Part shown: in pieces, positions 32,043 to 54,856 of the stretch | Numbering within the stretch: the first letter of the stretch is position 1 | Layout of the letters: every line of letters begins with the position of its first letter | DNA from: Paramagnetospirillum caucaseum | GTDB lineage: Bacteria; Pseudomonadota; Alphaproteobacteria; Rhodospirillales; Magnetospirillaceae | Assembly (NCBI RefSeq): GCF_000342045.1 | Contig: NZ_AONQ01000010.1 | Span: forward strand, 1-64,000 | Length of the DNA stretch: 64,000 nt | Direction of reading: 5' to 3' | Translations under genes and position numbers: made by a program | The notes under the pieces: generated by a model | Seen by the model: the letters and a program-made list of their open reading frames with translations, nothing else | Databases searched by the model: none | Told to the model about the DNA's origin: nothing

Positions 32043-33608
32043 ATGCCGCACCCGCCTTCAGAGCACCCCACCGCCCCACATTCGCGCCCGATCCGCGCGG
32101 CCCAGTACGTGCGGATGTCGACCGAGCACCAGCAATACTCGACGGAGAACCAGGAAGAGGCTATCCGCCAGTATGCGACTCGGCGCGGCATCGAAATCGT
32201 TCGTACCTACGCCGACGAGGGTAAGAGTGGGCTGAGTCTGGACGGGCGCGATGCTCTGAAACAGCTACTGGAGCACGTTCAGGGCGGGGCCGTCGATTTC
32301 TCCCTCATCCTGGTCTACGACGTCAGCCGCTGGGGCCGGTTCCAGGACGCCGACGAGGCCGCCCACAACGAGTTCGTCTGCAGGCGTGCCGGAATCGATG
32401 TTCAGTATTGCGCCGAGCCCTTCGAAAACGACGGCAGCTTCGGTTCCGACATCCAGAAAATGCTCAAGCGCAAGATGGCCGGCGAATATAGCCGCGAGCT
32501 CTCCGTCAAGGTCTTTGCCGGCCAATGCCGCTTGATCGAGCACGGATATCGGCAGGGAGGCCCGTCCGGCTATGGGCTTCGCCGGGAGCTCATTGACCAC
32601 ACAGGCGCAGCCAAAGGCGAACTGGTACGCGGCGAGCACAAGAGCATCCACACCGACCGCGTGGTTCTGATTCCTGGACCGCCCGAGGAGGTGACCACCG
32701 TCCAATGGATGTACCGGGCCTTCGTGGAAGAAGGGATGTCAGAACGGGAGATCGCCTTACTCCTCAACAACCGCGGCATTTCCACGGACCTCGGCCACCC
32801 GTGGACACGGGGCACCGTCCATCAAGTGCTGATCAACGAGAAGTACATCGGCAACAATGTCTGGAACCGGATGTCCTTCAAGCTGAAAAAGCGAAGGGTC
32901 AGAAACCGTCCGGACTTGTGGGTTCGCGCAGATGGTGCATTCGAACCGATCATTGACCGACATTTGTTTGATGCCGCACAGGCGATCATCTGCCAACGTT
33001 CACTTCGATTCTCCGACGAGGAGATGCTAGAAGGATTGAAGCAGTTGGTCTTCGAGCGCGGATACCTCTCGGGCTTGATCATCGACGAAACCGAGCATCT
33101 CCCGTCAAGTTCGGCTTATCGCACTCGCTTCGGCAGTCTGCTGCGTGCCTACCAGTTGGTCGGCTACTCGCCCGATCGCGATTACCGATACATCGAGATC
33201 AACCGCGTCCTACGGCGAATGCACCCGGATATTCTGGCCGAGGTAATTTCAAGGATCGAGCACCTCGGCGGCAGCGTGCGGTGTGACCCGGCAACCGACA
33301 TCCTCACGGTGAACGAGGAGTTCACTGCTTCCATTGTGATCGTACGCTGCCTGACGATGCCCGCCGGCTCACTGCGCTGGAAAATGCGCTTCGATGCCGG
33401 CCTGCGCCCGGACATCACCCTGGCCGTCCGCATGGATGCCGGGAACGAGCACCCGCTCGACTACTACCTTCTGCCCCGGGTCGACGTGGCGGCCGGAGCC
33501 GTCCGGCTGAAGGAAGAGAACAGCATCTATTGGGACGCCTATCGCTTCGATTCCATCGACCACTTCTTCTGGCTGGCCTCCCGCGCAAACATCAGGAGCG
33601 TCGCATGA
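32043..33608 (+). CDS. Large serine recombinase (resolvase plus Recombinase domains)
   Basis: A 521-aa site-specific recombinase. The N-terminal resolvase domain has YVRMSTEHQQYSTENQ with catalytic Ser26, then LILVYDVSRWGRFQDADEA. The Recombinase domain (about 180-300) contains GGPSGYGLRRELID and REIALLLNNRGI. The coiled-coil/zinc region usual in large phage integrases is replaced by an unfamiliar C-terminal 200 residues. It catalyses strand exchange through a Ser-DNA link, inserting or excising an element. Its TGA overlaps the next ATG (ATGA), so it is coupled to two ParB-like genes. Confidence 0.88.
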   Translation: MPHPPSEHPTAPHSRPIRAAQYVRMSTEHQQYSTENQEEAIRQYATRRGIEIVRTYADEGKSGLSLDGRDALKQLLEHVQGGAVDFSLILVYDVSRWGRFQDADEAAHNEFVCRRAGIDVQYCAEPFENDGSFGSDIQKMLKRKMAGEYSRELSVKVFAGQCRLIEHGYRQGGPSGYGLRRELIDHTGAAKGELVRGEHKSIHTDRVVLIPGPPEEVTTVQWMYRAFVEEGMSEREIALLLNNRGISTDLGHPWTRGTVHQVLINEKYIGNNVWNRMSFKLKKRRVRNRPDLWVRADGAFEPIIDRHLFDAAQAIICQRSLRFSDEEMLEGLKQLVFERGYLSGLIIDETEHLPSSSAYRTRFGSLLRAYQLVGYSPDRDYRYIEINRVLRRMHPDILAEVISRIEHLGGSVRCDPATDILTVNEEFTASIVIVRCLTMPAGSLRWKMRFDAGLRPDITLAVRMDAGNEHPLDYYLLPRVDVAAGAVRLKEENSIYWDAYRFDSIDHFFWLASRANIRSVA

Positions 33609-36829: not shown

Positions 36830-39133
36830 TCAGTTGACGTGGACGCGGGAATCCTCGGCGACGGCGACAATCTCGACCTGCTCGGCGCGGGGGCGGATGG
36901 CCAGTACACGGGCGGATTGCGCCCAGGCTTGGCCGGGGCCGAAGCTGAAATACGTCCTCTCCTCCGAACCGCCGACATAGGGGGTGACGGTCAGGGGATC
37001 GAGGACGCGAACCAGGGTGGCATCACCGGGCACCGCCTGGACTCGGAACGGCCCGGCAAGACTGCCGTCGCGGCGACGTAGCGCCAGGTAATGGGTGGCG
37101 CCCTCTGTCCATTCCACCGGCTCGGACAGGGCCAGCACGTCGCCCTGGTGCCCGATCACCTCGCCGCCTTGCCCCCAGCGGGGCATGTCGTGGGTTATGG
37201 CGACCAGATCGCCGTAGGTGGGGATCATGCCCTCCAACTCGGTGCGGAAGGTGACAAGGCGGCGGCGGTAGCGGTTGTTTGCGGCGATGTAGAGACCTTC
37301 CCGCTGGGCGTGGTCCTTGGCGGTGCAGCCGAACAAATTGACCTTGGCTGGGTTGTCGCCCTGGCTGTCGGGCAGCTTCGCCGTGGTCTCGTCGGGCTTC
37401 CAGGTACGCGACGAGAAATACTCCACCGTCACCGCGTCGGCGGTGTCGTCGCCGGGCATGACGTATTTGATCTTGAACGAGCCCTTGACGATGTTGCGCG
37501 GCCCGAACATGGCCACCGGCATGGTCTGGGGCGCGTCGCGGATGATGCGGACGATGCCGCCCTGCTGGATGGGCACGGCGCGGCCGCAACGGGCGATGCG
37601 GGTCAGGGCCTCCCACACCGTCATGCTGGTGTCGAACACCGCGTCGAAGCTGTCGCCACGGGCGGCCCAAACGGCATCCAGAGTGGCCAGCGTCTTGAGG
37701 TCGATGCGGGCATCAGCCAGCTTCGCCCCATAGTCCGCTTTGCAGGCATCGGCGAAGGCCCAGGCGATGGAACGAGTCGGTTGCGGTGCCGACCAACCGC
37801 CCGCCGCCGACCACACCGGCAGCTTGCGAGTGGCGATGACGTTGATCATGCGGCTGGACCGCTGCGACAGATTGTCGGTAGCCCGCATCTTGACCGCCAA
37901 CAGGGTGATGGCGCCGAAATCGGGCTGGCCGGTCAAATAGGCGCGCAGGGCTCCCCAGCGAATCTCGTGACCGGCCCGCTCGGCGGTGTCCTTGGTGTCG
38001 AGGCGCTTGAGGCGGACCTCGTAGCGCCCGGGCGACACCGCATAGCGGAAGGACAGGCGGATGGCGGTGTTGTTGGCGGCGGAGTGGGATTCGGTTGCCA
38101 GCACCGACCAGCCGGCAACGGCCGCGCCGTCGGCATCGATGGCGCGCGCCTCGACCTGCCACTGGACGGTGCGGCTATCGAGGCTGCCGCCGTCATTGGC
38201 ATAGTAGAGGCCACGCGGCATCACCACGTCGATGCCCAGCGCCCCGGCCGTGGTGTCGACCGGATTGGCGGTGAACGGGCCGATGAAGCCATCGTCGCCG
38301 GAGGCCACCAGATTGGGCGCCACCAGCTCCTGGCCGGCGATCTCGGCGGCGGTGACCACGTCCGGCTCGAACAGCGTCACCGGGGAACCGGGCGGGACGA
38401 TCTCTGTCTGAACCTCCTCGAAGGACGAGATCGGGGTGTCCTCGATGCGGATCTGCTCGACCGCATACTCGCCCTGGCCGATGACGTGGAGCTGATACAG
38501 GTACTGCTCGCCGCCGACGTAATCCTGGTAGGGCTCCGAGGCGAGGTCGGGATAGATCAGGTGGCGACCATAGATCACCGGGATCGGCTGCCCCAATCGG
38601 CCCTGATTACCCTGGGCCTGGATCGAATAGGTCGGGCTGGGGGCCGGGGCGCTGCCGCTGCCGCCCCAGTTGAGCGACGGCATCGACGGCTTGGGGGCCG
38701 GAATCACGGTGTTGATCAGCACCGAGCCGACCATGGCGATGCCGGCGGTGGCCATCGCCGCGGCGGTGCCGGTGGCGGTGTAACCCATGGCCACCGCCGC
38801 CATGGGGCCAAGATAGATGGCGGCCACCATCACCGCGATGGTCAGCACGATCCGCATGGGGTTCTTGCCGCCCCCGCCACCTCCGCCCCCGCCGCCCTGG
38901 GGCCAGCGAATGACGGTGACGACCTCGCCGTCGCCGATGGCCCGGACGGCATAGATGCCGACCGGCACCGCCATGCCGCCGATCAGGATTTCCGGTCCAT
39001 CGGGCCAGCAATCCTCGGCAATGCCGCAGTCCAGCAGCAGGGCGCCCACCGTGATCCCGGCTTCCACCGCATGCACCGAGCGGCTGGTCACCGGCTCGAA
39101 CGGATTGGTGACGATGACGATGGAGGCGGTCAT
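36830..39133 (-). CDS. Phage tail tip/host specificity protein (TipJ-like)
   Basis: A 767-aa protein with a membrane-like hydrophobic segment near residues 95-118 (IVLTIAVMVAAIYLG) preceded by ten consecutive Gly (80-89). The region from 140 on (GNQGRLGQPIPVIYGRHLIY, IAWAFADACKADYGA, GRAVPIQQGGIVRIIRD) matches the central baseplate hub protein of siphophages related to lambda J/TipJ. It would form the distal tail tip and contact the receptor. Its start overlaps the NlpC gene by ATGA. It is shorter than lambda J, so the receptor-binding part may lie in separate fibre proteins. Confidence 0.82.
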   Translation of the reverse strand: MTASIVIVTNPFEPVTSRSVHAVEAGITVGALLLDCGIAEDCWPDGPEILIGGMAVPVGIYAVRAIGDGEVVTVIRWPQGGGGGGGGGGKNPMRIVLTIAVMVAAIYLGPMAAVAMGYTATGTAAAMATAGIAMVGSVLINTVIPAPKPSMPSLNWGGSGSAPAPSPTYSIQAQGNQGRLGQPIPVIYGRHLIYPDLASEPYQDYVGGEQYLYQLHVIGQGEYAVEQIRIEDTPISSFEEVQTEIVPPGSPVTLFEPDVVTAAEIAGQELVAPNLVASGDDGFIGPFTANPVDTTAGALGIDVVMPRGLYYANDGGSLDSRTVQWQVEARAIDADGAAVAGWSVLATESHSAANNTAIRLSFRYAVSPGRYEVRLKRLDTKDTAERAGHEIRWGALRAYLTGQPDFGAITLLAVKMRATDNLSQRSSRMINVIATRKLPVWSAAGGWSAPQPTRSIAWAFADACKADYGAKLADARIDLKTLATLDAVWAARGDSFDAVFDTSMTVWEALTRIARCGRAVPIQQGGIVRIIRDAPQTMPVAMFGPRNIVKGSFKIKYVMPGDDTADAVTVEYFSSRTWKPDETTAKLPDSQGDNPAKVNLFGCTAKDHAQREGLYIAANNRYRRRLVTFRTELEGMIPTYGDLVAITHDMPRWGQGGEVIGHQGDVLALSEPVEWTEGATHYLALRRRDGSLAGPFRVQAVPGDATLVRVLDPLTVTPYVGGSEERTYFSFGPGQAWAQSARVLAIRPRAEQVEIVAVAEDSRVHVN

Positions 39134-39525
39134 GGCGCAAACCGATAGAAGCCCTCGATGGCCCAGCCGTTGAGGCGAAGGGCGTCGGAGCGCTGGAACA
39201 CCACGCCGGATTCCTGGCTGCAATGGAGGACGCCGCCACCATCCACGTCGAGCCAGACGCCCACATGAATGGGATGGCGGGACCGACGCAGCAGCACGCA
39301 ATCGCCTTCCGTAGGCGGGTCAACCTTGGCCCAGCGCCGACGCTCGGGGTGGTCGCGGAAGGTCCGGCCCATGACCAGCATGTCTTCGGGATTGCCGATC
39401 TCGGGCAGGATGGGGCCGAAATGGCGGGCCTGCACCATGCGGACGAATTCCCAGCAATTGAACGAGTCCGGCCCGCTGCCGTGGACGGACCACGGCAGGC
39501 CGATATAGGCGACAGCCCAATGCAT
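39130..39525 (-). CDS. NlpC/P60 family tail peptidase
   Basis: A 131-aa protein with SFNCWEFVRM (Cys24 nucleophile) and HPIHVGVWLD (His87), the catalytic pair of NlpC/P60 C40 peptidases. In tailed phages this enzyme sits in the tail tip and clips cell-wall peptides during DNA entry, as in lambda gpK. It lies immediately upstream of the TipJ-like gene and overlaps it by 4 bases. Confidence 0.88.
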   Translation of the reverse strand: MHWAVAYIGLPWSVHGSGPDSFNCWEFVRMVQARHFGPILPEIGNPEDMLVMGRTFRDHPERRRWAKVDPPTEGDCVLLRRSRHPIHVGVWLDVDGGGVLHCSQESGVVFQRSDALRLNGWAIEGFYRFAP

Positions 39526-39593: not shown

Positions 39594-40118
39594 TCAGCGT
39601 GCCAGTCCGGGAAAGCGCTGGGCGGTATAAGTGATGGAGGGGAACGATTTGTTGCCGGCATCCAGCATGCGGGCGCGCCCCGTGACCCTCATCGTGTCGG
39701 CCTCGACATCGGTCAGGATCATGGTGATGGGCGGGTCCATATGGGGGCCGTCGAGATCGGTGGAGAGATAGGGCCGCCAGGTGATCTCGATCACCTGCTG
39801 GCTGATGGCGGCTCTCTCAAGGGCATCGGTGATGTCGCTGCCGACATTGTCGAGGGTGACGGTGATTTCCGGCACCGGAGCGGTATCCACCGGCGGCGGC
39901 GAGAACTCGAAGGCCAACGCGGCAAAGGTCACCAGCTTGCCGCCATCGCGGGGAGCGCTTACCTCCAGCCGGGCGGTGAGATCGGCATGGTCGCGGACCA
40001 CCCGGATCGGCTCGTCGAAGGTTGGATGCCAGATCTCCAGCGTATCCAGGATCACCGTGCCGCTGGGGGCGGAGGCGAACGCCTCCTTCAGCGCCTGGCT
40101 GAGAGCCGGATCAGGCAT
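39594..40118 (-). CDS. DUF1833 family phage tail protein
   Basis: A 174-aa protein starting MPDPALSQALKEAFASAP and containing LDTLEIWHPTFDEPIRVVRD and YLSTDLDGPHMDPPITMIL, the recognised DUF1833 pattern. These proteins sit between the tape measure and NlpC genes of siphophages and are thought to be tail-tip components analogous to lambda gpL. The start overlaps the previous gene by 8 bases. Confidence 0.8.
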   Translation of the reverse strand: MPDPALSQALKEAFASAPSGTVILDTLEIWHPTFDEPIRVVRDHADLTARLEVSAPRDGGKLVTFAALAFEFSPPPVDTAPVPEITVTLDNVGSDITDALERAAISQQVIEITWRPYLSTDLDGPHMDPPITMILTDVEADTMRVTGRARMLDAGNKSFPSITYTAQRFPGLAR

Positions 40119-40446
40119 CCCGCCGGTCCTCGCCATAGGGGCACAGGGTGCGGGCTTCCAGCAGCAGGCGGATCTGGTGGACGATCTCGGACAGGCCTTC
40201 GACCGCCGAGCGCAGGGCCTCGGTCTGGCGGGCCTGCTCCTCCACCACATGGGCGAAGGCTTCGACGGGCACGCCAGAGGAGTCCGACGCCCCCTGCTTC
40301 CTCGACCATGCCCAGGCGATGATGGCGATGATGATTACCGTGGCGGCGATGGCGGCGACCTGGACCATGGGAGCGGCTTGCCCCCAGGCGCCGACATACT
40401 GGGTGGCGATACCCGCCCAGATTTCCGGGGATTGTTCCGCAGCCAT
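40111..40446 (-). CDS. Small single-pass membrane protein of the tail region
   Basis: This 111-aa protein has one strong transmembrane helix (VQVAAIAATVIIIAIIAWAW, about 28-47) followed by a helical coiled-coil-like stretch (VVEEQARQTEALRSAVEGLS). It may be an Rz-like or superinfection-exclusion protein, but I do not recognise a family. It overlaps the DUF1833 gene. Confidence 0.6.
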   Translation of the reverse strand: MAAEQSPEIWAGIATQYVGAWGQAAPMVQVAAIAATVIIIAIIAWAWSRKQGASDSSGVPVEAFAHVVEEQARQTEALRSAVEGLSEIVHQIRLLLEARTLCPYGEDRRDA

Positions 40447-40452
40447 GGCCGC

Positions 40453-40728
40453 CTACTCCAGCACGATGCCGACCTTGGCCGCCTCGGCGGTCAGGTCGGC
40501 GCTGCCGCGCCAGCGGAAGAAATAGGGCGCGGTCTCGACCACCTGACGAAGTTCGTCAGACTCGGTGACCGGGCCGAAGCCGATTTCCTCAGGCTGATCG
40601 GGGATTTCCGCATCGTCGGGGATGGCGAAGTAATGCTTGCCGCCGCACTGGCCGAGGGATTCGTACTGGGCGGCCGGCAGCCAATGCAGGCCATTGGCGG
40701 GGGTGTAGGCGTAAACCTTCATGATCAT
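40453..40728 (-). CDS. Hypothetical phage protein
   Basis: A 91-aa protein (MIMKVYAYTPANGLHWLPAA; an internal Met at residue 3 may be the start). It contains YFAIPDDAEIPDQPEEIGF and ends in EAAKVGIVLE. It follows the RCC1 fibre gene closely on the same strand, where tail-fibre assembly chaperones often lie, but no fold can be assigned. Confidence 0.6.
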   Translation of the reverse strand: MIMKVYAYTPANGLHWLPAAQYESLGQCGGKHYFAIPDDAEIPDQPEEIGFGPVTESDELRQVVETAPYFFRWRGSADLTAEAAKVGIVLE

Positions 40729-40737
40729 CTCCTCCGA

Positions 40738-42954
40738 TCAGAATTTCAGCGGCTGCGGGCAGGTGGTGCTGGTGTTCATCCAGTCGCCGAGCGCGTAGTT
40801 GCTGGACGGCCCCCAGGCAAAGACGGTGCCGTCCATGGCCAGGGCGTAGGCGTCCTGCTCGGAATTGCCGGTGCCGTCGTGATAGCCCGAGCAGCCGATA
40901 CGGCGGATGCGGCCATGGTATTTCGGCGGGAACCCGACCATGCGGAACACGGTAGTCGGGTTGGAGGCGTTGGGGGTGCCGATGAACGAACCGCCCCATC
41001 CGGCGGTCATGGGATAGCCGCTGCGCCGCGCGATGCGGTCGGCGGCCGAGGCGTGCCGCAGCAGCAGAACGCTGTTGTAGTGGTACTGGGTGGCCTGACT
41101 GATGCCGGTGGTCGGCGACACCACCTGGGAAACATGCTCGACGCCGGGCACCAGGACGGGAGCCTGTCGGCTGTTGGTGTCGCCCAGGCCGAGCTGGCCG
41201 TTGACGTTGCTGCCCCAGGCCCAGAACTGGCCGTTCTTGGTGAGCGCGAAGCCACCCGCGCCGTAGCGGGCGCCATAGGCCCAAATGTCGATCACCTTGG
41301 TCGGGTCGGTCAGCCCGAGATTGCCGACCAGCACCGGGGTGCTGCGGTTGGTGGCGGAATTGTCGCCAAGCTGCCCGCTCTCATTGAAGCCCATGGCGTA
41401 GAGCTTGCCGTCGGCCTTGATGTAGAAAGCGAAATTGTGGGAGCCGTAGCCGGTATTGGCGCACTTCACTACCGGCCCCGCGTCGATCAGCACGGGAGCC
41501 GGCTTGTTGGCGGTGGTGTTGTCGCCCAGATTGCCATAGCCGTTGTAGCCGCAGCCGAACAGCTTGTTGTCGGTGGTGACGAAGTGGGCGAAGCCGTAGG
41601 AACCGCCCGCCGCCACGATGCACTGAACATTGCGTTCGAAGGCGGCAATCTTGGTGGGGATGGTGCGGTTGCCGGTGTCGCCGTGCCCGAGCTGGCCATA
41701 GCCGTTGTAGCCCCATGAATAGACGTCGCCGTCCTCCATCAGGGCGTAGAACGCGGCGCTGCTGTCCGGCCCGGTCATGCAGGTCGACACCACGTAGCGG
41801 ACGGGACCGGCATCGCCGGGAAAGACGATGCGCTGGAAGAAGGATTTGCTCGAGGTGGTGCCGTCGCCCTGCTGGCCATGCCCACCGTAGCCGGTGGCGT
41901 ACAACTCCCCGTTCTCCAGCAGGATCATGGTGGTGCCGTAATTGCCGTAGACCTGCTTGACCCCGGCATCGGTCAGGTTCTCGGTGACCAGATGTCCTTC
42001 GTTGGTGGTGCGGTACAGCGCGGGCTGGAAATGGGGCCAATGCGAGCCGTTGGGATCACCGTTGCGGCCCGAGTTGGAATTGCCCCACACGGAGAGACCG
42101 CCGTCCTGGAACACCGCCGCCAGGCCGCGATAGATCGACGTCATGCCGGACTGGCTGTCGGCGTCCCAGATACCCAAATTGGCATGATCGGGAAAGACCA
42201 CCGCGTCGGTGATCAGGTTGGCCAGGCGCGGCGTGGCGACCAGCGACACCGCATTGCCCCCCGCGACAAGATTGTCGTCGACGTCGCGGGCGATGAAATC
42301 GTTGGCGAGATACTTGGCCCGCGAGTTGGTGCGCCCGGGCGGCAACAGCCATTTGGGATCGGTGCCGTCCGAGCCGAGGAACTTGGACGCGGCGCCCAGC
42401 GGCAGACGGGCATTGCCGGAACCATTGCGGACATAGAGATCGCCGCGCACCGCCAGGGGCGATGCGGCGGCGGCAATTGCGGCGGTAACATCGAAGACGT
42501 GATCGACCATGCCGCCGTCGCAGAACAGCCAGCCCTTACTGCCGGGCGCGACGGAAATCGCAGCCACCGTCTGGATCGCGGTCTTGATCCGTACCGGGAG
42601 CGGCAGTTCGTTGTCGATGATGACGGCCCAGCCCCGCGACGGGGCGATCACCACGACCTCAGCAGCGGTGAAGTCCCCCTGGTCCGGGCGCAGCACGACG
42701 ACATCGCGCGCCACCTGATCCTCGGTCAGCGTCAGGATGGCGGTGCCGGGGGCCGCGACAGTGACGATCTCGGCGGGCTTTCCGGCTTCGTCCAGCAAGC
42801 CGAGCAAGGCATCGGCGCCGACCATGGATTCGACCGCCTTGGCCAGATAGACGAGGTCGCGGGCGGACGCCCCGTCCTCGCCGGCTGCTGCGGCCAGGGT
42901 TTGGCCTCGGCCCTTGATCGTCTCGATCAGGCCGCGAAGGGATGCGATGGACAC
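40738..42954 (-). CDS. Phage tail fibre with RCC1-type seven-bladed propeller
   Basis: A 738-aa protein. The N-terminal part (1-270) looks like a phage tail-fibre shaft or attachment region. Residues about 280-735 hold seven copies of an RCC1/ATS1-type motif: VWGNSNSGRNGD, ATGYGGHGQQGDG, SWGYNGYGQLGHGD, GCGYNGYGNLGDN, AMGFNESGQLGDN, AWGSNVNGQLGLGD and AWGPSSNYALGD. Seven repeats make a complete beta-propeller. Such a domain at the tail tip would suit receptor or glycan binding. The RCC1 fold identification is from the repeat pattern; the binding role is inference. Confidence 0.85.
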   Translation of the reverse strand: MSIASLRGLIETIKGRGQTLAAAAGEDGASARDLVYLAKAVESMVGADALLGLLDEAGKPAEIVTVAAPGTAILTLTEDQVARDVVVLRPDQGDFTAAEVVVIAPSRGWAVIIDNELPLPVRIKTAIQTVAAISVAPGSKGWLFCDGGMVDHVFDVTAAIAAAASPLAVRGDLYVRNGSGNARLPLGAASKFLGSDGTDPKWLLPPGRTNSRAKYLANDFIARDVDDNLVAGGNAVSLVATPRLANLITDAVVFPDHANLGIWDADSQSGMTSIYRGLAAVFQDGGLSVWGNSNSGRNGDPNGSHWPHFQPALYRTTNEGHLVTENLTDAGVKQVYGNYGTTMILLENGELYATGYGGHGQQGDGTTSSKSFFQRIVFPGDAGPVRYVVSTCMTGPDSSAAFYALMEDGDVYSWGYNGYGQLGHGDTGNRTIPTKIAAFERNVQCIVAAGGSYGFAHFVTTDNKLFGCGYNGYGNLGDNTTANKPAPVLIDAGPVVKCANTGYGSHNFAFYIKADGKLYAMGFNESGQLGDNSATNRSTPVLVGNLGLTDPTKVIDIWAYGARYGAGGFALTKNGQFWAWGSNVNGQLGLGDTNSRQAPVLVPGVEHVSQVVSPTTGISQATQYHYNSVLLLRHASAADRIARRSGYPMTAGWGGSFIGTPNASNPTTVFRMVGFPPKYHGRIRRIGCSGYHDGTGNSEQDAYALAMDGTVFAWGPSSNYALGDWMNTSTTCPQPLKF

Positions 42955-42978
42955 GGTATTTCTCCTCTGTGATGGGGG

Positions 42979-43296
42979 TTACAGGAGATCGATTCCCAAC
43001 AGCGCCATGTCCTCCAGCAGTTCACCGGCATCGGCGGGCTTGCGCTTGGTCACGGGTGCGGGAAGCAGGGCGTCGAGCGGCGAGAACGGCTCCCAGGCGG
43101 CGCCGTCCCAGCGGAACAGGCACTCGGGGTTTTGCACCTTGACCCACAGATTGAGGGCGCGGGCGTCCAGGGGGATGGCGTCGCGGCCGGCGACATCGGG
43201 CACAACGAGCATGGCGTCGAGCGCCTGACGCTGGGCGTCGAGATCGGCCAGCGGATCGGCGAAGAAGGCGTCGATGCGGTCCTGCAATGTGGGCAT
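42979..43296 (-). CDS. Hypothetical phage tail-region protein
   Basis: A 105-aa protein, MPTLQDRIDAFFADPLADLD then an aromatic-rich part (LWVKVQNPECLFRWDGAAWE) and a short helix at the end. It lies between two fibre genes on the same strand with 6-24 base gaps, so it is probably a small fibre-associated structural protein. No family recognised. Confidence 0.6.
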   Translation of the reverse strand: MPTLQDRIDAFFADPLADLDAQRQALDAMLVVPDVAGRDAIPLDARALNLWVKVQNPECLFRWDGAAWEPFSPLDALLPAPVTKRKPADAGELLEDMALLGIDLL

Positions 43297-43301
43297 TGGC
43301 G

Positions 43302-44339
43302 TCAGCCTTCGAGGATCGTGGTGAAACGGAGCAGGTCGTCGCGGGCGTCCAGCAGGCGGCGGCGCTCGGCATCGAGGGCGGCGCGGGCCACCTGCTCGAT
43401 GGGGATTGCGAAGCGGGCGACATGGGCGGCAGCGGCATTGATCTGGCCGGTGGTGGTGACGGCCAGCGCCTGGACCTCGGATTCGAACCCGGCGGCGCTG
43501 GCAGCGATGTGATCCTCTGCGGATGAACTGGCGGCGGAGATCTCGGCCAACGCCTGGTCGATGCCCGTCTGGATCTCGTCCGCCAGGGTGCGGAATGTGT
43601 CATCGGCCTGGGCCACCACTGCCGCGGCCTCCGTCACGCTGGCGCTGGCGGCGTCGGCGGCCAGAGTGGCTGCCACCATCTGCGCCGCGGCAATGCCCAC
43701 CTGTCGGGCCGCCTCGTCGGCGCTGGCCTTGGCGGCGGCTTCTGAGCGCCCCGCGTCATCGGCGAAGGCGGAGAACAGCATCAAGGCGTCGCGGGTGCCG
43801 GCCAGTTGACGGGCATCGGCAGCCAGGGCGCGGCGGGCGACCGCTTCGATGGGCAGGGCAAAGCGCGCCGCATGGGCACGGGCTTCGGCGGCGGCACCTT
43901 CCGCCTCGGCTGCGGCACCGTCGGCGGCGGCAATCCGGGTCTGCACCTGGGCATCGGCCTGGGCGACCATCTCGCCGATGCCGGCCTCGGCGGAGGTGGC
44001 CACCGAGCGGATGTCGGCGGCGGCCTGGTCGGCCGCCGCAATGGCCCGGCCGACGGCAGCATCGGCCTCACCGGCCTTCTCTTCGGCGACAGTGGCAAAT
44101 CCCGCCGCAGCCTCCTTGGCCTCACGGGCGGCGGCGACCGCACTCACCAGATCGCCGGCCTCCTGGTGCAGAATCTCCTCGGCATCGGCCACGGCGCGGG
44201 CCACGGTCTTGACGGGACCGCCCTCGGTCGGGACCAGACTCGCGTCTCCGGTCGCCGGGCCGTGAACCACGCTGTGCAGCAGGGCGCTGTCCGCCGTCAC
44301 TTTCTCGACGGCGGTGGCAAGGTCGGTTTGCAGGGTCAT
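43302..44339 (-). CDS. Alanine-rich coiled-coil tail fibre protein
   Basis: A 345-aa protein dominated by Ala-rich heptads (ADAEEILHQEAGDLVSAVAA, VGRAIAAADQAAADIRSVAT, ISAASSSAEDHIAASAAGF). Two repeats of FALPIEAVARRALAADARQL and FAIPIEQVARAALDAERRRL suggest an internal duplication. The ATG at 44339 directly follows the minor tail gene. This composition is typical of trimeric fibre shafts. Receptor specificity would then reside in the RCC1 protein next to it. Confidence 0.7.
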   Translation of the reverse strand: MTLQTDLATAVEKVTADSALLHSVVHGPATGDASLVPTEGGPVKTVARAVADAEEILHQEAGDLVSAVAAAREAKEAAAGFATVAEEKAGEADAAVGRAIAAADQAAADIRSVATSAEAGIGEMVAQADAQVQTRIAAADGAAAEAEGAAAEARAHAARFALPIEAVARRALAADARQLAGTRDALMLFSAFADDAGRSEAAAKASADEAARQVGIAAAQMVAATLAADAASASVTEAAAVVAQADDTFRTLADEIQTGIDQALAEISAASSSAEDHIAASAAGFESEVQALAVTTTGQINAAAAHVARFAIPIEQVARAALDAERRRLLDARDDLLRFTTILEG

Positions 44340-44346
44340 GGAGCGA

Positions 44347-44844
44347 TTACCAGCGATTGGTGACCGGCAGGCCGGCATGCAGGGCGGAATGCAACATGTC
44401 GATGGTGGCGAACAGCGCCGGCACGTCCTCTGCCAGCAGGATCTCCAGCGCCCCCTCGTCGAGCATGGGGCGCTCGCGGATTTCCAACACCGAGGTGACG
44501 ATCCAAATCCCGCCCCGACTGGGCACCGCCTTGTAGGGAGCGTTGCTCTGGCCGAGGAAACGGGCCTCGTGCCCGGTGACGCCGACACCGCCCAGCAGGT
44601 CGATCGCAAACCATTCCGCGCCGTCGGCCAGTTTCAGGCGGAACCATGCCTCGAAGGTGGCGAAGTCGGTTTGCGATAGCCGCCAGCGCACCGGGATGCG
44701 GGTGGGCGTGCCGGTGAAGCGGCGCCGCTGCCGCGCCGGTCCCGCCTCCATGTCGGTGCGGGAGGTGGCGTCCTGCGGCTCGATGGCATAGCCGTCGAAG
44801 GTCGGCAGGGGCAGCCGGACGGGCCAGGAGATGGTGGTGGTCAT
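44347..44844 (-). CDS. Phage minor tail protein
   Basis: A 165-aa protein with PLPTFDGYAIEPQDATSRTD, EAGPARQRRRFTGTPTRIPV and WRLSQTDFATFEAWFRLKLA, a pattern I know from conserved minor tail proteins in alphaproteobacterial prophages. It follows the tape-measure gene with a 4-base ATGA overlap, the position of lambda M. No activity is predicted. Confidence 0.72.
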   Translation of the reverse strand: MTTTISWPVRLPLPTFDGYAIEPQDATSRTDMEAGPARQRRRFTGTPTRIPVRWRLSQTDFATFEAWFRLKLADGAEWFAIDLLGGVGVTGHEARFLGQSNAPYKAVPSRGGIWIVTSVLEIRERPMLDEGALEILLAEDVPALFATIDMLHSALHAGLPVTNRW

Positions 44845-47402
44845 CGATAGCTTCCCGCCGCCGGGTTCAGCCCATAGCGATGCTCCAGCACCGGGGCCAT
44901 GCCTTCGCCGCGGCCGATGCGGCGACTCATGCGCCCCTCGATCTCCTCGACGATGATGTCGAGATGGATGCGGCCATCCGCCCCCTGGGATTGCTCGGCG
45001 CGGGCCTGGGTGCCGGACGCGTTGTTGTTGACCGTCACCACCACGCCGACCGACGCCGGCTGCGACAAGGCGGCATTCAGGATGCGATCGGCATTGTCCA
45101 TCTGCCGGGGCGTGAAGACGCCCTCACCGACGCGGGCGACGATGGGGCGCTCTCCGGCCACCAGACCACCGCCGTGGAACTTCGGCGCATTGGCGAAAGC
45201 CGAGGGGTTGAACGAACGGATCTCCAGCCGGTCGAGACCAACCAAGCCACCGGTATGGGCGATGGCGAAGGCGCCGGTGTCTGGCACAGGGACAGAGCCG
45301 CCGCTACCGGCCCCAGCCGATCCGGTACCGGAGAAGAAGCTTCCGATGCCGGCGATCAGGCCGCCGAATAGTCCACCGCTGGCGCCGCCGAGCAAGGGCG
45401 CCACCACCGCCATCCGCCAGGCGGCGCGCAAGGCTTCCTCGGCCAAGGTGTTGAACAGGTCGCCCGCCGCCAGCTTGCCGGTGGTGGCCCATTTGACGAA
45501 GGCATCCTCGCTGGACTTCAGCATGCCGGTGACAACACGCTCGGCACCGCGGGCGGCGTCGGACGAATCCTCGACATAGGCCGCCAGGGCGCGCTTGGCA
45601 CCGTCCGACCATTCCCTGGACGCCGCCAGCTTGCGCTTCTCGGCCGCCTCGATGGCGCGGGCATGGGTGTCGGCATCGAGCGCGCCCTGGGCCAGCAGGT
45701 CGTTCAGCTCGCGCAATGTATCGGCGTATTCCTGCTCGGCGGTGCGGTGCTGGCGGGCCAGTTCCTTGCCCCGCGTGCGGGCGTCTGCCTCCTCCTTCAG
45801 CGCCCGCTGAAGCTCGTCGAGCGCCTGTTTCTGGTCGAACAGTTCCCCGGCCAGTCGGGCCGCCTCGGCGCGGTCGTTGGCCGACGACTCCTTGGGCAGT
45901 CGCGACACCGACTGGTCGATGGCGGCCTGCCGGGGCTGCCACGGGGCGGAAAGCTCGCGCTGGAGATCGTCGAGCACCTTGCGGGTCTGCTCGGCAGCAC
46001 GGAGGCGGGCCTCGGCCAGCGGCTTCTCGATAGCCTCGACCTTCCGTGCCGCCACCTGCCGCAACAGGGCGATTTCGCGGTCGACATCGCCCGCATCGAC
46101 CCCCGGCAGCGATGCCTTCTTTCTGGCCGTTTCGATGTCACGGGCCAGTTGGGTCTCGATGGCTGCGATCTTGCCGGCGGCATCGGTGGCCGCCTTGACC
46201 TTCTCCTCCTCCAGCGCCTTCAGCCGCACCGACATGGCCTCGGCATTGCGGTCGCGCTCGGTCGCCTGGCGGCCGGACTCGCCTTGGCCACGCTCGGCTT
46301 CGAAGGCCGCCACCTCAGTGCGGCCCTTCTCGACCAGGGCGTCGATGTCGCGGCGGAGTAGGTCGGCCTGCCGGCGCAGATCTGCCATGCGGCGGCCGGT
46401 GACGCCGATGCTCTGGTATTCGGCGATCCGGCCCTCGACCTCGACCAGTTGCAGGCTCTTGGCCGCCACCTGGGCGGCGATGTCGGGGCCTTTCAGCAGG
46501 TCGCGGATGCCATCGACCATGCCGGTGAGGTCGTGCAGCACGCCCTGCGCGCCGCGCCCGACCGTGCTGGTGCGCGCGATCTCCTCCAGCAGGTTGCCCC
46601 AGGCGGCGGCGAGATGGTGGGCGGCGCCGGTCAGACCGGCCGCTTCCGCCGCCCCGGCGCCGCCGACCTGTTGCTCCAGGGCGTCGAGCACGATCCTTTG
46701 GGCACCGGCGACATCGCCGGTCTCCACCAGCGAGCGGATCACCTCCTTCTGGGTGGCGGAGAACGACACGCCGACCCGCTTCAGCGCCGAGATGCCCTCG
46801 ATGGGATCCTCCAGCGCCTTGCCCAGTTGGGTGGCCGAAGACGACAGATCCTGGCGGAACACCGCCGACAGGTCCTGGGCCAGGCGGATCGCACGGGTGA
46901 ACGTCTCGCCCGACACCGAGCGGAAGGTCGCCATGACGGCGGACGCATCCATCACGCCCTCGGCGGTGGCCAGCGTGCCAGTTTCCATCTCGTCGGCCAG
47001 CGCGGCCAATTGGCCGGCGGTCAACCCCGAGGCGGCGCCGGTCGCCTTCAGCACCGCCTCCAGCCGGCGCAGCGACTGGTCGGCGGATTCCATCTCGCGC
47101 ACGCCCTGGACCAGGGCGGCGCCGACGGCTCCCACCGCTGCCGCGGCGATCAGACCGGTGCGCCCGGTGGCCATCAACGCATCGCCGAACAGGCCCATCC
47201 GCCCGGCCATGCCCTCGACCACGCCGCGCACTCCCTGGCCGACCTCGTTGATCGCCAGCAGCGCCTTCGACGCCGGCTGTGCCGCCCGCTCGATCCGCTC
47301 CAGCGCCCGGCGGCCGTCCTCGCCCAATTGCATCAGGGCGCGGCGGAACACCTCGCCGTCTTCAAGGGCAAGGCGGATGGAGACGGTGCGGGCGGCAGTC
47401 AT
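44841..47402 (-). CDS. Tail tape measure protein
   Basis: An 853-aa protein. The N-terminal third has RLALEDGEVFRRALMQLGED and a hydrophobic segment (TGLIAAAAVGAVGAALVQGV), then the phage tail tape-measure core (about 120-280, LSSSATQLGKALEDPIEGIS). Long heptad stretches fill 330-640, and a Gly-rich hydrophobic stretch near 690-720 (LLGGASGGLFGGLIAGIGSF) may help DNA passage through the membrane. Length predicts a tail of roughly 125 nm by the usual rule of 0.15 nm per residue. Confidence 0.9.
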   Translation of the reverse strand: MTAARTVSIRLALEDGEVFRRALMQLGEDGRRALERIERAAQPASKALLAINEVGQGVRGVVEGMAGRMGLFGDALMATGRTGLIAAAAVGAVGAALVQGVREMESADQSLRRLEAVLKATGAASGLTAGQLAALADEMETGTLATAEGVMDASAVMATFRSVSGETFTRAIRLAQDLSAVFRQDLSSSATQLGKALEDPIEGISALKRVGVSFSATQKEVIRSLVETGDVAGAQRIVLDALEQQVGGAGAAEAAGLTGAAHHLAAAWGNLLEEIARTSTVGRGAQGVLHDLTGMVDGIRDLLKGPDIAAQVAAKSLQLVEVEGRIAEYQSIGVTGRRMADLRRQADLLRRDIDALVEKGRTEVAAFEAERGQGESGRQATERDRNAEAMSVRLKALEEEKVKAATDAAGKIAAIETQLARDIETARKKASLPGVDAGDVDREIALLRQVAARKVEAIEKPLAEARLRAAEQTRKVLDDLQRELSAPWQPRQAAIDQSVSRLPKESSANDRAEAARLAGELFDQKQALDELQRALKEEADARTRGKELARQHRTAEQEYADTLRELNDLLAQGALDADTHARAIEAAEKRKLAASREWSDGAKRALAAYVEDSSDAARGAERVVTGMLKSSEDAFVKWATTGKLAAGDLFNTLAEEALRAAWRMAVVAPLLGGASGGLFGGLIAGIGSFFSGTGSAGAGSGGSVPVPDTGAFAIAHTGGLVGLDRLEIRSFNPSAFANAPKFHGGGLVAGERPIVARVGEGVFTPRQMDNADRILNAALSQPASVGVVVTVNNNASGTQARAEQSQGADGRIHLDIIVEEIEGRMSRRIGRGEGMAPVLEHRYGLNPAAGSYR

Positions 47403-51996: not shown

Positions 51997-52332
51997 TTAT
52001 TTCCTGGCGGCGGCTTCGCGGGCACGCCGGACGATGGGGCTCTCGGCTTCGGTCTTGGGAGCCGCAGCCGCCGGAGCGGCGGCCACCACGTCGGTGGCGT
52101 CGGACCGCTCGGCCAACTGATCCAGCACGGTGCGGCGCAGCGCCTCGGGACGAATGCCCTTGGCCATGGCCTCGGCGGGATCGATGGCCACGCCGAGGCG
52201 GGCGGCCTGGGCGGCGATGGCGCTGATCTCGGAATATTCGGCCCGCAGGCGCTGCTCCAAATCGGCGTTGACCTGGGCGGGCGGCTGAGGCACCGCAGCA
52301 ATCACGGGGATTTCCCCCTGGGGTTCGGACAT
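51997..52332 (-). CDS. Internal scaffold protein (Nu3-like) in the protease gene
   Basis: An in-frame ATG at 52332, MSEPQGEIPVIAAVPQPPAQ, is preceded by GAAAGGAAGTCCCG, a good ribosome site. It gives a 111-aa helical protein with VNADLEQRLRAEYSEISAIA and the shared C-terminus of the protease. This is the arrangement of lambda C/Nu3, where the nested product is the capsid scaffold. Internal initiation is inferred. Confidence 0.65.
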   Translation of the reverse strand: MSEPQGEIPVIAAVPQPPAQVNADLEQRLRAEYSEISAIAAQAARLGVAIDPAEAMAKGIRPEALRRTVLDQLAERSDATDVVAAAPAAAAPKTEAESPIVRRAREAAARK

Positions 52333-53205
52333 CGGGACTTCCTTTCGGGCGGCGATGGGGCGAGAAATGGTGGGGCGGGCCAGCGCGGCCCCGAGATCAG
52401 CCAGGGCGATACGCAGGGTGCCGACCTTGTCGGCCAGACCGGCGGCCACCGCCTGGTCGCCGCGATAGACCGCAGCCTCGGTGGCCCGCACAGCGTCGGG
52501 AGACAGCCGCCGCCGCTCGGCCACCAGGGCGGTGAATTTTCCGTACAAGGCGTCCACGTCGGCCTGGAGGGCGACGCGGGCCGAATCGGACAGCGGCTGA
52601 TGCGGGTTGCCATCGACCTTCGCCGCCCCGGCATGGACGAAGGTCCAGGCCAACCCCGCCTGAGCGTCGGCCCCGGACTCGTCGCGGTGAACCGCCACCA
52701 CGCCGATGGAGCCGATTTCGCCGGTCTGGGTAACGTAAAGGCGGTCGGCGGTGCAGGCGATGGCATAGGCCGCCGACAGCGCCGCCTCGTCGGCCACCGC
52801 CCAGATAGGCTTGCCACATTGGGCGCGGATGGCCTGAATGTGGTCGACCAGATCGAACAGGCCACCTACCTCGCCACCGGAGGAATCCACGTCCAGCAGA
52901 ATGGCGCGGATGCCGGGATCGGTGGCTGCCGCCCCGATGGATTCGGCGATGTCCGAATAGGCGGTGAGGCCGCTGGCGGCACCCAGATAGCCCGAGCGGG
53001 CCACCAGGGTGCCGATCACCGGCACGATGGCGATGCCGTCGGGGGTGACCGCCATATCGGCACCCGGTGCAGCATCACCGTCGAACGAAACGGCCTGCCC
53101 GGCGAGCCTGGGGCCGAGCGCGCCGAGGATGACGTCCAACTTGCTGCGGGCGACCAGCAGCGGCGTCCCGTAGAGTCGGGCCGCGAGATGGGGCAGATCG
53201 TGCAT
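51997..53205 (-). CDS. S49 family head maturation protease (GpC-like) with scaffold region
   Basis: A 402-aa SppA/ClpP-fold protease: ILLDVDSSGGEVGGLFDLVD, ADEAALSAAYAIACTADRLY (nucleophile Ser144) and VHAGAAKVDGNPHQPLS (general base Lys196). Residues about 20-270 form the protease; residues 293-402 are a helical, Ala-rich scaffold region that can be made separately from an internal start. It would cut scaffold and portal N-termini during capsid maturation, as lambda GpC does. It lies between the portal and decoration genes. Confidence 0.92.
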   Translation of the reverse strand: MHDLPHLAARLYGTPLLVARSKLDVILGALGPRLAGQAVSFDGDAAPGADMAVTPDGIAIVPVIGTLVARSGYLGAASGLTAYSDIAESIGAAATDPGIRAILLDVDSSGGEVGGLFDLVDHIQAIRAQCGKPIWAVADEAALSAAYAIACTADRLYVTQTGEIGSIGVVAVHRDESGADAQAGLAWTFVHAGAAKVDGNPHQPLSDSARVALQADVDALYGKFTALVAERRRLSPDAVRATEAAVYRGDQAVAAGLADKVGTLRIALADLGAALARPTISRPIAARKEVPMSEPQGEIPVIAAVPQPPAQVNADLEQRLRAEYSEISAIAAQAARLGVAIDPAEAMAKGIRPEALRRTVLDQLAERSDATDVVAAAPAAAAPKTEAESPIVRRAREAAARK

Positions 53206-53213
53206 GTCGGTCC

Positions 53214-54644
53214 TTACGGGGTCGGTGAGGGCAGCAAGAGCGGTGACGGATCGGAACCGAAGGTCAGCCCCAGCCGTCGCTCCCGGTCCCGGTCGGCGGC
53301 GATCTCGGCATCGACCTGTTCGGCGTCATAGCCACGCTCGGCCAGGGCCTGCGTCCGGCTTTTCAGGCCGGCGCCGATCTGCTCGATCTCGGCCTTGGTG
53401 TCCTTCAGTGGATCGACCCAGTCCCATTTCGGCGGCAGCCAGGAGCAGGCGATGAAGGTGGCCCGCTGGCGTTCATAGCCGGGGATGTCGAGCGCCCCGG
53501 ACAGGACGGCCACGTCCAGCCAGCGCTGCCACACTACCCGGCACATCTGGTGGACCATCACCGAGTGCTGCCATGCCTCGACCCGGCGGCGGAACTCCAG
53601 CAGCGCCATGCGCGAGTTGGAGTAGTTGGCCTTCAGCATGTCGTTGGACAGGTAGGCGTAGGGCACCCCGGTGGCGGCGGATATCTGCAGCAGGGTGCGG
53701 TATTCGAACGGCTCATACGATCCGCCCACATCGGCGGGGGCGGAGGTCTGGATCTGCTCGCCCGGCTCCAGCGGCACCACCTGGCCCGGTTGGACCTCGA
53801 CAATACGGTCGCCGGAACCGTCATCGGCGGGCACCACATCGATCACGTCGGCCGGAGCGGGCGAGGTCACGAACATCGCGTACATCGCGGCGATCTTCTT
53901 GCGCTCCAGTTCGGCGTCGTCGTACTGGTCGAGCAGAAACAGCTTCACCACCGCCGGGGCCAGCCGCGACACCCCGCGCAACTGGCCTGATTCCACCGGG
54001 TCGATGACGTGGATGATCTCGGCGGCCGGCACCCGCACCGTCTCGCCGGCCAGACCGGGATCGGTGAGATCACCGGGATGGCGGCGCAGGAAGTGATAGG
54101 CGACGCGGCGGCCAATGCGGTCGAACTCGATCCCCTGGCGGATGACGTTGCCGCCGGGAAGGATCTCGGTTCGGGTCAGCGGCAGCATTTCCGAGGGCAG
54201 CATCTGAAGCTGCAACGGCACCGACAGCCCGTCTTCGGGGCGACGGGGGCGCAGGCGGAAGAACACCTCCCCGGCGATGAACACTTCCCTGGCGGCGCGA
54301 CGCTGCTGGCCGTAGAAATCGGTCAGGGCCTCGGCATCGGATTCGTCGGTCCAGGCCAGCCACAACTGCTGCACCCGGGTCTTCAGATCCTTGTCGGCGA
54401 TCAGCGAGGACGGCTTGATGCCGGTGCCCACAGCGTTGCCGGTCCAGCTTTCGGCGGCGTTGAGGGCGTAGCCGTTGTTGCGGACCAGATAGCGGGCGCG
54501 GGCGGTGATGTCCGAGCCGGCGGCGGCGATCAGGGTGTTGACGTGGGCGCGGCTGGGCTGGAAGCCCTTGAGGCGGCGGCTGCCCTGGGCGGCCTCGAAG
54601 CCGCCGATCATGGCGCCGATCCTCCTGCGCAATGCCGACAGCAT
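53214..54644 (-). CDS. Portal protein (lambda GpB family)
   Basis: A 476-aa portal protein, MLSALRRRIGAMIGGFEAAQ with YLVRNNGYALNAAESWTGNA, VHVIDP-like AEIIHVIDPVESGQLRGVSR, and YEPFEYRTLLQISAATGVPY, all signatures of the lambda-type portal (phage_portal_2). Twelve copies form the DNA channel and the docking site for terminase. A GTG six bases upstream overlaps the gpW stop and could be the start. It follows GpW and precedes the protease. Confidence 0.94.
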   Translation of the reverse strand: MLSALRRRIGAMIGGFEAAQGSRRLKGFQPSRAHVNTLIAAAGSDITARARYLVRNNGYALNAAESWTGNAVGTGIKPSSLIADKDLKTRVQQLWLAWTDESDAEALTDFYGQQRRAAREVFIAGEVFFRLRPRRPEDGLSVPLQLQMLPSEMLPLTRTEILPGGNVIRQGIEFDRIGRRVAYHFLRRHPGDLTDPGLAGETVRVPAAEIIHVIDPVESGQLRGVSRLAPAVVKLFLLDQYDDAELERKKIAAMYAMFVTSPAPADVIDVVPADDGSGDRIVEVQPGQVVPLEPGEQIQTSAPADVGGSYEPFEYRTLLQISAATGVPYAYLSNDMLKANYSNSRMALLEFRRRVEAWQHSVMVHQMCRVVWQRWLDVAVLSGALDIPGYERQRATFIACSWLPPKWDWVDPLKDTKAEIEQIGAGLKSRTQALAERGYDAEQVDAEIAADRDRERRLGLTFGSDPSPLLLPSPTP

Positions 54645-54646
54645 GG

Positions 54647-54856
54647 TCACAGCCCCTTGGTGGCGACGGCGAGGATGCGCCGCCGGGGCTTTCTGCCCTC
54701 CAACACGGCGATGCGGCGGTCGAGATCGGCCAGGACATGGTTGGCCTGGGTCAGGTCGTACTGGACGGTGCGGTCGCCGACGGTGACGCGGGCCACCAGC
54801 GAGTTGCGCCGCGCCAGCACGCGCTCGCGCTCGGCCTTCATTTCGTCGAGAGTCAT
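54647..54856 (-). CDS. GpW-like head-tail joining protein
   Basis: A 69-aa protein, MTLDEMKAERERVLARRNSL, then VGDRTVQYDLTQANHVLADL and a basic end. Length, the Arg-rich first helix and the central beta hairpin match lambda gpW, which joins head and tail. It sits between terminase and portal as in lambda, with one base before and a short overlap after. Confidence 0.88.
   Translation of the reverse strand: MTLDEMKAERERVLARRNSLVARVTVGDRTVQYDLTQANHVLADLDRRIAVLEGRKPRRRILAVATKGL

What the first reader, a model, noticed from the sequence alone, without database searches (positions are those of the whole stretch)
40738..42954. Seven RCC1-type repeats in a phage tail fibre
Residues 280-735 of this protein have exactly seven WG/YG..GQLG-type repeats, the number for a closed RCC1 propeller, at the position of a tail fibre. 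RCC1 domains are best known in eukaryotic chromatin and signalling proteins. Use as a receptor-binding head in a siphophage would be a neat adaptation.
Basis: partly seen in the sequence, partly recalled or inferred. Interest (0 to 1): 0.66.

Follow-up and report, generated by a model that had tools for sequence, protein, structure and literature searches.

The report
RCC1-propeller head of prophage tail fibre
A virus lying dormant in a bacterial genome carries a protein, probably part of its tail fibre, that ends in an RCC1-type propeller, a fold best known from nuclear proteins; related viruses swap or change this head, which suggests that it recognises host cells rather than handling DNA.

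Summary
The gene is real: window 40738-42954, minus strand, 738 aa. Its C-terminal two thirds are RCC1 repeats (PF00415 E 5e-39); AlphaFold2 gives a propeller matching HERC2 and UVR8 (Z 29).

"Exactly seven" repeats is probably wrong. A degenerate rung near aa 652 was missed. Glycine is kept at eight rungs in 18 of 18 aligned phage heads, and two models show eight strand sets, some incomplete. 21 of 23 chosen bacterial-genome loci show seven.

The tail-fibre reading is well supported. The gene lies between tape-measure and lambda-like tail-tip genes. A second prophage in the same genome shares both flanks (80% and 90% DNA), but not the 3.7 kb fibre cassette. One relative in this slot has a carbohydrate-binding N-terminus. 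In T7-like Pseudomonas phages with flanking genes 98-99% identical, 50-residue stretches of RCC1 heads at the fibre position drop to 24% identity.

Earlier papers propose that phage RCC1 proteins order DNA (PMC7247149, PMC11370258). This evidence favours an exchangeable receptor-binding head, probably eight-bladed. Receptor, presence in virions and ring closure are untested.

The parts
40738..42954 (-). Whole gene of the RCC1-headed fibre protein, 738 aa, GTG start
42775..42954 (-). N1, aa 1-60: predicted helical anchor, shared with phage proteins from metagenome contigs
   Evidence: low confidence in the model (pLDDT 40-50)
42460..42774 (-). N2, aa 61-165: mostly beta domain
42322..42459 (-). 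Linker, aa 166-211
40741..42321 (-). RCC1-type propeller head, aa about 212-738, eight glycine rungs at aa 291, 355, 415, 469, 522, 581, 652, 715
40999..41001 (-).
   Evidence: not visible by motif score alone
43302..44339 (-). Putative fibre shaft, 345 aa, Ala-rich; its first 52 aa are shared with prophages that carry another cassette
   Evidence: no PHROG match
42979..43296 (-). Putative adaptor, 105 aa, whose C-terminus (LLEDMALLGIDLL) resembles that of the genes upstream of the same anchor in metagenome phages
   Evidence: no PHROG match
40453..40728 (-). 91 aa gene that is present or absent together with the RCC1 gene in the prophages compared; possible fibre chaperone (inference)
40438..44183 (-). 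Exchange cassette: absent from the second prophage of the same genome although both flanks are shared
44841..47402 (-). Tape-measure protein (flank)
39594..40118 (-). DUF1833 minor tail protein (conserved flank)
   Evidence: scanned there with a longer 5' end, 39594-40250
39130..39525 (-). NlpC/P60 protein (conserved flank)
36830..39301 (-). Fused lambda gpI/gpJ-like central tail-tip protein (the ORF's 5' end may be over-extended)

Best explanation
The protein is the distal, receptor-binding part of a side tail fibre of a lambda-like siphophage prophage. The upstream Ala-rich gene (43302-44339) makes the shaft, held to the tail by its conserved N-terminus. The 105 aa adaptor links shaft and head through its C-terminal peptide and the helical N-terminus (N1) of the RCC1 protein. 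The C-terminal RCC1-type propeller, most likely with eight blades closed by the C-terminal strand pairing with strands of aa 213-291, binds a molecule on the host surface, probably a glycan, through blade loops. Shown here: the gene, the repeats, the predicted fold, the gene order, and exchange of the cassette between prophages with similar flanks. Inferred: assembly order, closure of the ring, receptor binding and kind of receptor.
For: Repeat families and fold. Eight rungs; eight strand sets, some incomplete. Control: 21 of 23 loci picked from the 78 genome loci show seven, and in those 21 no further rung stands beside the array (best flanking score -20; the window's weak end rungs score -7.4 and -3.0). 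Tail module. Slot: 35 of 158 loci (the listed best of 293 and 477 relatives; some are near-duplicates) have two or more of the window's five tail genes nearby, 30 of those with g44347 upstream and DUF1833 downstream. Cassette swap inside one genome: window 44184-44844 79.9% and 39598-40437 90.0% shared, 40438-44183 not; DUF1833 94%, NlpC 93%, RCC1 protein absent. G012 prophage: DUF1833 79%, NlpC 88%, head 31%, with a CBM_5_12 N-terminus over the Pfam cut-off. T7-like PollyC against SeaP1-4: neighbouring genes 97.8-98.9% DNA identity in 4 of 4, fibre aa 1-350 84-100%, 50-residue bins from aa 401 24-76%. The closest viral model is named a tail fiber protein (Littlefix).
Against: In the closest relatives the head is more conserved (89-98%) than N2 (62-87%), which does not look like fast diversification within this clade. 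This anchor was not seen with another kind of head: 21 of 22 complete ORFs have RCC1 repeats and the 22nd is frame-broken. In one metagenome relative with this anchor (L017) the gene lies between portal and major head protein, not in a siphophage tail module. The missed rung ranks only 29 of 520 by motif. The L041 model shows no closing C-terminal strand (aa 452-474 pLDDT under 50) and its first two sets have three full strands each; the window's set ending at aa 355 also has three. Non-RCC1 structure matches at similar Z include Photorhabdus PLL lectins, which I recall as seven-bladed. Ring closure was not measured (no coordinates). No virion or binding data exist for this phage.
Confidence: 0.74

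Rival explanations
1. It is a DNA-organising protein, as PHROGs' category and two papers on large phages suggest for RCC1-like phage proteins.
For: PHROG hits phrog_4219, 7220 and 16766 are filed under DNA, RNA and nucleotide metabolism. The phAPEC6 authors propose DNA ordering from the known role of RCC1; the W70 authors mention packaging of DNA in the capsid. The W70 members are in virions by mass spectrometry.
Against: In the passages read the proposals rest on analogy. Here the gene sits with shaft, adaptor and tail-tip genes, is exchanged as a cassette, and relatives carry a T7-fibre-like or CBM N-terminus.
Confidence: 0.08
2. It is a fibre part, but the propeller is a structural or chaperone-like cap and the receptor is bound by another protein such as the gpI/J tip protein.
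For: Head conservation in the closest clade exceeds that of N2; a lambda J-like protein is present.
Against: Strong divergence of the head with 98-99% identical flanks in PollyC/SeaP phages; exchange of the cassette rather than of DUF1833 or NlpC.
Confidence: 0.12
3. It is an ordinary seven-bladed RCC1 propeller with one large insertion between blades 6 and 7 (compatible with the fibre reading).
For: Only seven motifs stand out by score. RCC1/BLIP-II is classed as b.69.5, in the same fold class as the seven-bladed Sema domain (passage in PMC3797127).
Against: Strand sets at 596-652 and 667-715 plus the presumed closing set give eight. Relatives have a canonical motif at the eighth place. A second model gives the same count. 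ODA16, whose human form is called eight-bladed in PMC12633730, is among the non-RCC1 matches of the window model, aligned from aa 210 to 715 and 730, though it is not in the 50 rows for L041.
Confidence: 0.2
4. It is a prophage cargo gene that alters the lysogen's own surface.
For: It is in a prophage with an integrase gene.
Against: It lies inside the structural operon between conserved tail genes on the same strand.
Confidence: 0.03

Closest known systems
PollyC gp38 and Ppr_SeaP1-4 fibre proteins (T7-like Pseudomonas phages)
   Same: RCC1 repeats at the C-terminus of a protein at a tail-fibre position; in PollyC, SeaP1, SeaP2 and SeaP4 a glycine falls on all eight rung columns, with the first rung weak in all and the seventh weak in PollyC and SeaP2
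   Different: N-terminus like the T7 fibre (PF03906 E about 6e-5, just under its cut-off, PollyC and SeaP2); matched parts 28-31% identical to the window's
Littlefix gp88 (Schitoviridae), annotated tail protein, in BFVD tail fiber protein
   Same: Best match in the viral structure library, E 8.7e-28
   Different: 1365 aa and another phage family
RCC1-like virion proteins of W70 (phrog_4219) and GAP32, and RCC1-like proteins of phAPEC6
   Same: RCC1 family; in virions by mass spectrometry in W70 and GAP32
   Different: Short: 40-43 kDa in W70, 385 aa in GAP32; proposed to order DNA
UVR8, HERC RLD domains, RCC1, BLIP-II
   Same: Propeller fold, Z 17-29; for UVR8, HERC and RCC1 also repeat sequence
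   Different: As recalled seven-bladed; not viral
Lambda-like side tail fibre cassettes (recalled)
   Same: Conserved N-terminal shaft segment followed by exchanged distal parts
   Different: Distal domain is an RCC1 propeller

Membership tests
RCC1/BLIP-II superfamily | RCC1 repeats recognised by the curated family models | tested here: met
   PF00415 133.1 bits (cut-off 21.7), PF25390 175.1 bits (cut-off 150)
RCC1/BLIP-II superfamily | Beta-propeller of four-stranded blades | tested here: met
   By prediction only: model pLDDT 76.5, pTM 0.70, Z 29.3 to HERC2 RLD3 (rmsd 3.8, 339 aligned)
RCC1/BLIP-II superfamily | Seven blades | tested here: inconclusive
   Points to eight but ring closure was not measured; therefore described as an eight-repeat variant
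RCC1/BLIP-II superfamily | Ran exchange activity or chromatin binding (defines RCC1 itself, not the superfamily) | not testable with these tools
   No assay
Phage tail-fibre receptor-binding protein | Gene in the tail module | tested here: met
Phage tail-fibre receptor-binding protein | Conserved attachment part, exchanged or variable distal part | tested here: met
   but within the closest clade the head is conserved
Phage tail-fibre receptor-binding protein | Present at the tail of the virion | not testable with these tools
   No virion data for this prophage
Phage tail-fibre receptor-binding protein | Binds a host surface receptor | not testable with these tools
   No assay; a CBM_5_12 domain in a relative from the same slot is indirect
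Phage tail-fibre receptor-binding protein | Trimer | not tested
   Only monomers were predicted
DNA-organising virion protein | Inside the capsid and binds DNA | not testable with these tools
   Proposal read

The most novel reading that the evidence does not exclude
Phages have evolved an eight-bladed version of the RCC1 propeller and use it as a widespread, exchangeable host-recognition head in long-tailed and T7-like phages. The filing of phage RCC1 proteins as DNA-condensation factors is then wrong for this group and perhaps in general.
Probability: 0.55. Interest if true: 0.62.

Novelty: new variant of a known kind. Interest (0 to 1): 0.5.

Why it matters
Receptor-binding heads decide which bacteria a phage can infect. 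If RCC1 propellers are such heads, viral genes now filed under DNA metabolism are host-range determinants. An eight-bladed RCC1 ring would extend a fold whose solved members are, as far as I recall, all seven-bladed. Laboratory phages with near-identical neighbouring genes and divergent RCC1 heads (PollyC, SeaP1-4) make the idea directly testable.

Tried and rejected
Tried: looking for the same N-terminal anchor with a different head. 39 viral loci: 22 complete ORFs, 21 with RCC1 repeats; the 22nd (L189) is 236 aa because the frame breaks, and repeats continue in another frame. 6 of 17 truncated ORFs reach repeats; the other 11 are cut short before the region where the repeats lie in longer relatives. 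So no head swap on this anchor was seen; the swaps seen are of the whole cassette.

Rejected: counting blades by profile score alone. The repeat profile finds 5 or 6 rungs in these phage heads, 3+3 in L033, so the count of eight rests on the alignment, the spacing and the models. The same profile finds seven in 21 of 23 genome loci, nine in L105 and six in L108, which has the phage tail genes. As a profile could miss weak rungs there too, I looked beside the 21 arrays and found no candidate.

Papers. Passages only were read of PMC10218006 (its two RCC1 counts did not show in the passages, and it has no propeller), PMC5259590, PMC12648861, PMC7247149, PMC12633730, PMC3797127, PMC11888443 and PMC9083414 (no RCC1 in the main text). 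PMC10253068 and PMC12906663 were searched for RCC1-domain terms without a hit. Of PMC11370258 I read a passage and section 8. Searches (open-licence PMC only; several lists cut, e.g. 25 of 631) showed no title or abstract start that describes an RCC1 tail-fibre receptor head; that is weak evidence of absence.

Errors of mine: one search included a 3-residue placeholder (L087:1-10), not used further. In one search the gpIJ column is wrong (length not a multiple of three); gpIJ positions are taken. One search failed on a file pattern and was rerun. The 23 loci were picked by me from 78 for a match length of about 1 kb.

Full report
What is there. The finding is a 738-residue ORF on the minus strand, 42954 to 40738, with a GTG start and AGAGGAG just upstream. 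Pfam gives PF25390 (E 3.5e-51) and PF00415 (E 5e-39), both over their cut-offs. By sequence, the nearest solved proteins are HERC1 and UVR8. In the 4.86 Mb draft genome (236 contigs) the five PF00415 matches reported all fall on this gene, one running past its stop. Named close relatives come from Magnetospirillum, Phaeospirillum and Rhodospirillaceae records, one from a Stygiobacter-labelled metagenome bin; that the host belongs to the Magnetospirillum group is inferred from them.

Surroundings. On the same strand lie terminase (54858-56822), portal (53214-54650), head protease (51997-53205), tape measure (44841-47402), DUF1833 minor tail protein, NlpC/P60 and a fused lambda gpI/gpJ-like protein. 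An integrase gene, of serine type to judge from its DNA-invertase match, stands at 32043-33608, where the matching IMG/VR record begins (offset computed). This is a lambda-like siphophage prophage.

How many repeats. The count misses a degenerate one. The interval from G581 to G715 is 134 residues where the others are 53-64; in it stands MTAGWGGSFIG, which ranks 29 of 520 on its own. In an alignment of 18 phage heads (25-86% identity to the first), glycine is conserved in 18 of 18 at eight rungs (window aa 291, 355, 415, 469, 522, 581, 652, 715). Relatives such as L029 and L041 have canonical motifs at the degenerate place. Five heads added to that alignment (L265, PollyC, SeaP1, SeaP2, SeaP4) have glycine at all eight columns, with a weak first rung in the Pseudomonas phages and a weak seventh in PollyC and SeaP2.

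Control. Of 23 loci picked from the 78 genome loci, 21 show exactly seven repeats, L105 nine, and L108, which has the phage tail genes, six like L041. The same profile finds only 5 or 6 in phage heads, so it can miss rungs. I therefore scored the stretches 40-75 residues beside the 21 arrays: the best is -20, against -7.4 and -3.0 for the window's weak end rungs; the window's G652 site itself scores -31.6, no better than background.

Structure. The AlphaFold2 model of the window protein (29 sequences, pLDDT 76.5, pTM 0.70) has seven consecutive strand sets ending at 355 (three strands), 415, 469, 522, 581, 652 and 715 (four each), plus strands 213-216, 277-282, 287-291 and 730-735, which I read as the closing eighth blade. 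The second model, the head of L041 (18 sequences, pLDDT 79.0, pTM 0.82), also gives eight sets: the last six have four strands each, the first two three full strands each, and no closing C-terminal strand is predicted. Best solved matches are HERC2 RLD3 (Z 29.3, rmsd 3.8, 339 aligned) and UVR8 (Z 29.1, rmsd 4.1, 354 aligned) for the window, and UVR8 for L041 (Z 37.7, rmsd 3.8; top Foldseek row TM 0.75 by target, 0.61 by query). The high rmsd is what a seven-to-eight mismatch would give, but I had no coordinates and could not measure closure. Among non-RCC1 rows for the window stands ODA16, whose human form a passage of PMC12633730 calls eight-bladed; Photorhabdus lectins, seven-bladed as I recall, stand there too.

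Is it a fibre? The 158 loci examined are the best 80 of 293 viral and 78 from 477 genomic relatives, with some near-duplicates. 35 of 158 have two or more of the window's five tail genes within 9 kb on the same strand, and 30 of these have g44347 upstream and DUF1833 downstream of the RCC1 gene. I then asked what other prophages hold in this slot. DUF1833 was found in 20 of 55 genomes of the family. 34 regions were fetched, of which 20 show both g44347 and DUF1833; 4 of these 20 hold an RCC1 gene. Seven of the 20 hold a 449 aa ORF; the one scanned (L255) matches no Pfam or PHROG family. The sharpest case is L255, a second prophage region in the same genome: window 44184-44844 (79.9% DNA) and 39598-40437 (90.0%) are shared, 40438-44183 is not. 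The break lies just after the first 52 residues of the shaft gene, as expected for exchange of the distal fibre. In L265 (genome G012), DUF1833 is 79% and NlpC 88% identical but the head is 31%, with a CBM_5_12 N-terminus over the Pfam cut-off.

An independent test comes from isolated phages. PollyC and SeaP1-4 carry the RCC1 protein at what I recall as the T7 fibre gene position, after the internal virion proteins, with a weak T7-fibre N-terminal match in the two scanned (E about 6e-5, just under cut-off). The gene upstream and the gene annotated terminase or endonuclease downstream are 97.8-98.9% identical in DNA between PollyC and each of SeaP1-4, in the parts held. The fibre is 84-100% identical over aa 1-350, but from aa 401 the 50-residue bins run 52-76% for SeaP2 and SeaP3 and 24-50% for SeaP1 and SeaP4. 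This is the usual signature of a receptor-binding domain (inference).

Attachment. The gene directly upstream ends in ELLEDMALLGIDLL. The genes upstream of the same anchor in 14 metagenome loci end alike, for example DLLEEAVLLDIDVL. L029, with a related anchor, has a looser version; L041, with another anchor, lacks it; for L009 the script picked an ORF in another frame. The anchor itself is 40-48% identical to nine of these metagenome sequences. In L017 the order is terminase, portal, adaptor, RCC1 protein, major head protein. So an adaptor plus anchored RCC1 head seems to move as a pair between phages of different gene order; the physical contact is inferred.

Results against. Within the closest clade the head is more conserved (89-98%) than N2 (62-87%). 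The anchor was not seen with another kind of head. The first, seventh and eighth rungs of the window are weak or degenerate. No virion or binding data exist here.

What is known. PHROGs files three of the five matching families under DNA, RNA and nucleotide metabolism and two under tail. The phAPEC6 paper (PMC7247149, passages) proposes that RCC1-like proteins order DNA, noting eleven copies. The W70 paper (PMC11370258, section 8) detected three phrog_4219 proteins in virions and mentions the DNA idea. PMC5259590 (passage) reports GAP_001 as a structural protein. None of these passages offers a binding test. Database records already name the Littlefix and PollyC proteins tail, tail fiber or tail fiber assembly proteins. 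I therefore call this a new variant of a known kind: an RCC1-type fibre head with probably eight blades.

Noticed in passing
L262, L263, L264, L274 (prophage regions with a DUF1833 tail module): A protein matching radical SAM families (phrog_1802; PF04055, in L264 under its cut-off) occupies the fibre slot, in L262 and L274 as the C-terminal part of a protein of about 600 aa. A radical SAM enzyme in a fibre slot is odd and might modify the fibre.
   Followed up: partly
L255:4857-6203 and ORFs of the same length in L251, L253, L258, L261, L267, L277: 449 aa ORF in the swapped fibre slot; the L255 one matches no Pfam or PHROG family; a candidate new receptor-binding protein. The others were not aligned.
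   Followed up: partly
L286 (SeaP1 fibre head): SeaP1 has a tandem repeat of about 37 residues in the head that SeaP4 has once: looks like a recent partial blade duplication.
   Followed up: no
PHROGs phrog_4219, phrog_7220, phrog_16766: Category DNA, RNA and nucleotide metabolism seems taken from the RCC1 name; phrog_20500 and phrog_11922, which also match, are filed as tail.
   Followed up: partly
window 42979-43296 and genes upstream of the anchor in 14 metagenome loci among L013-L208: Similar C-terminal peptide (LLE...LL.I.VL) in small proteins directly upstream of the fibre gene.
   Followed up: partly
L095 and G019:C13: Relatives of the fibre gene with an internal stop codon; reported only.
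   Followed up: no
L283 (Clostridioides phage LIBA6276, 1627 aa protein): Very long RCC1-repeat protein with genes annotated tail fiber protein on either side.
   Followed up: no
L105 (Bacterium BMS3Abin06): RCC1 array with nine detected repeats, unlike the usual seven.
   Followed up: no
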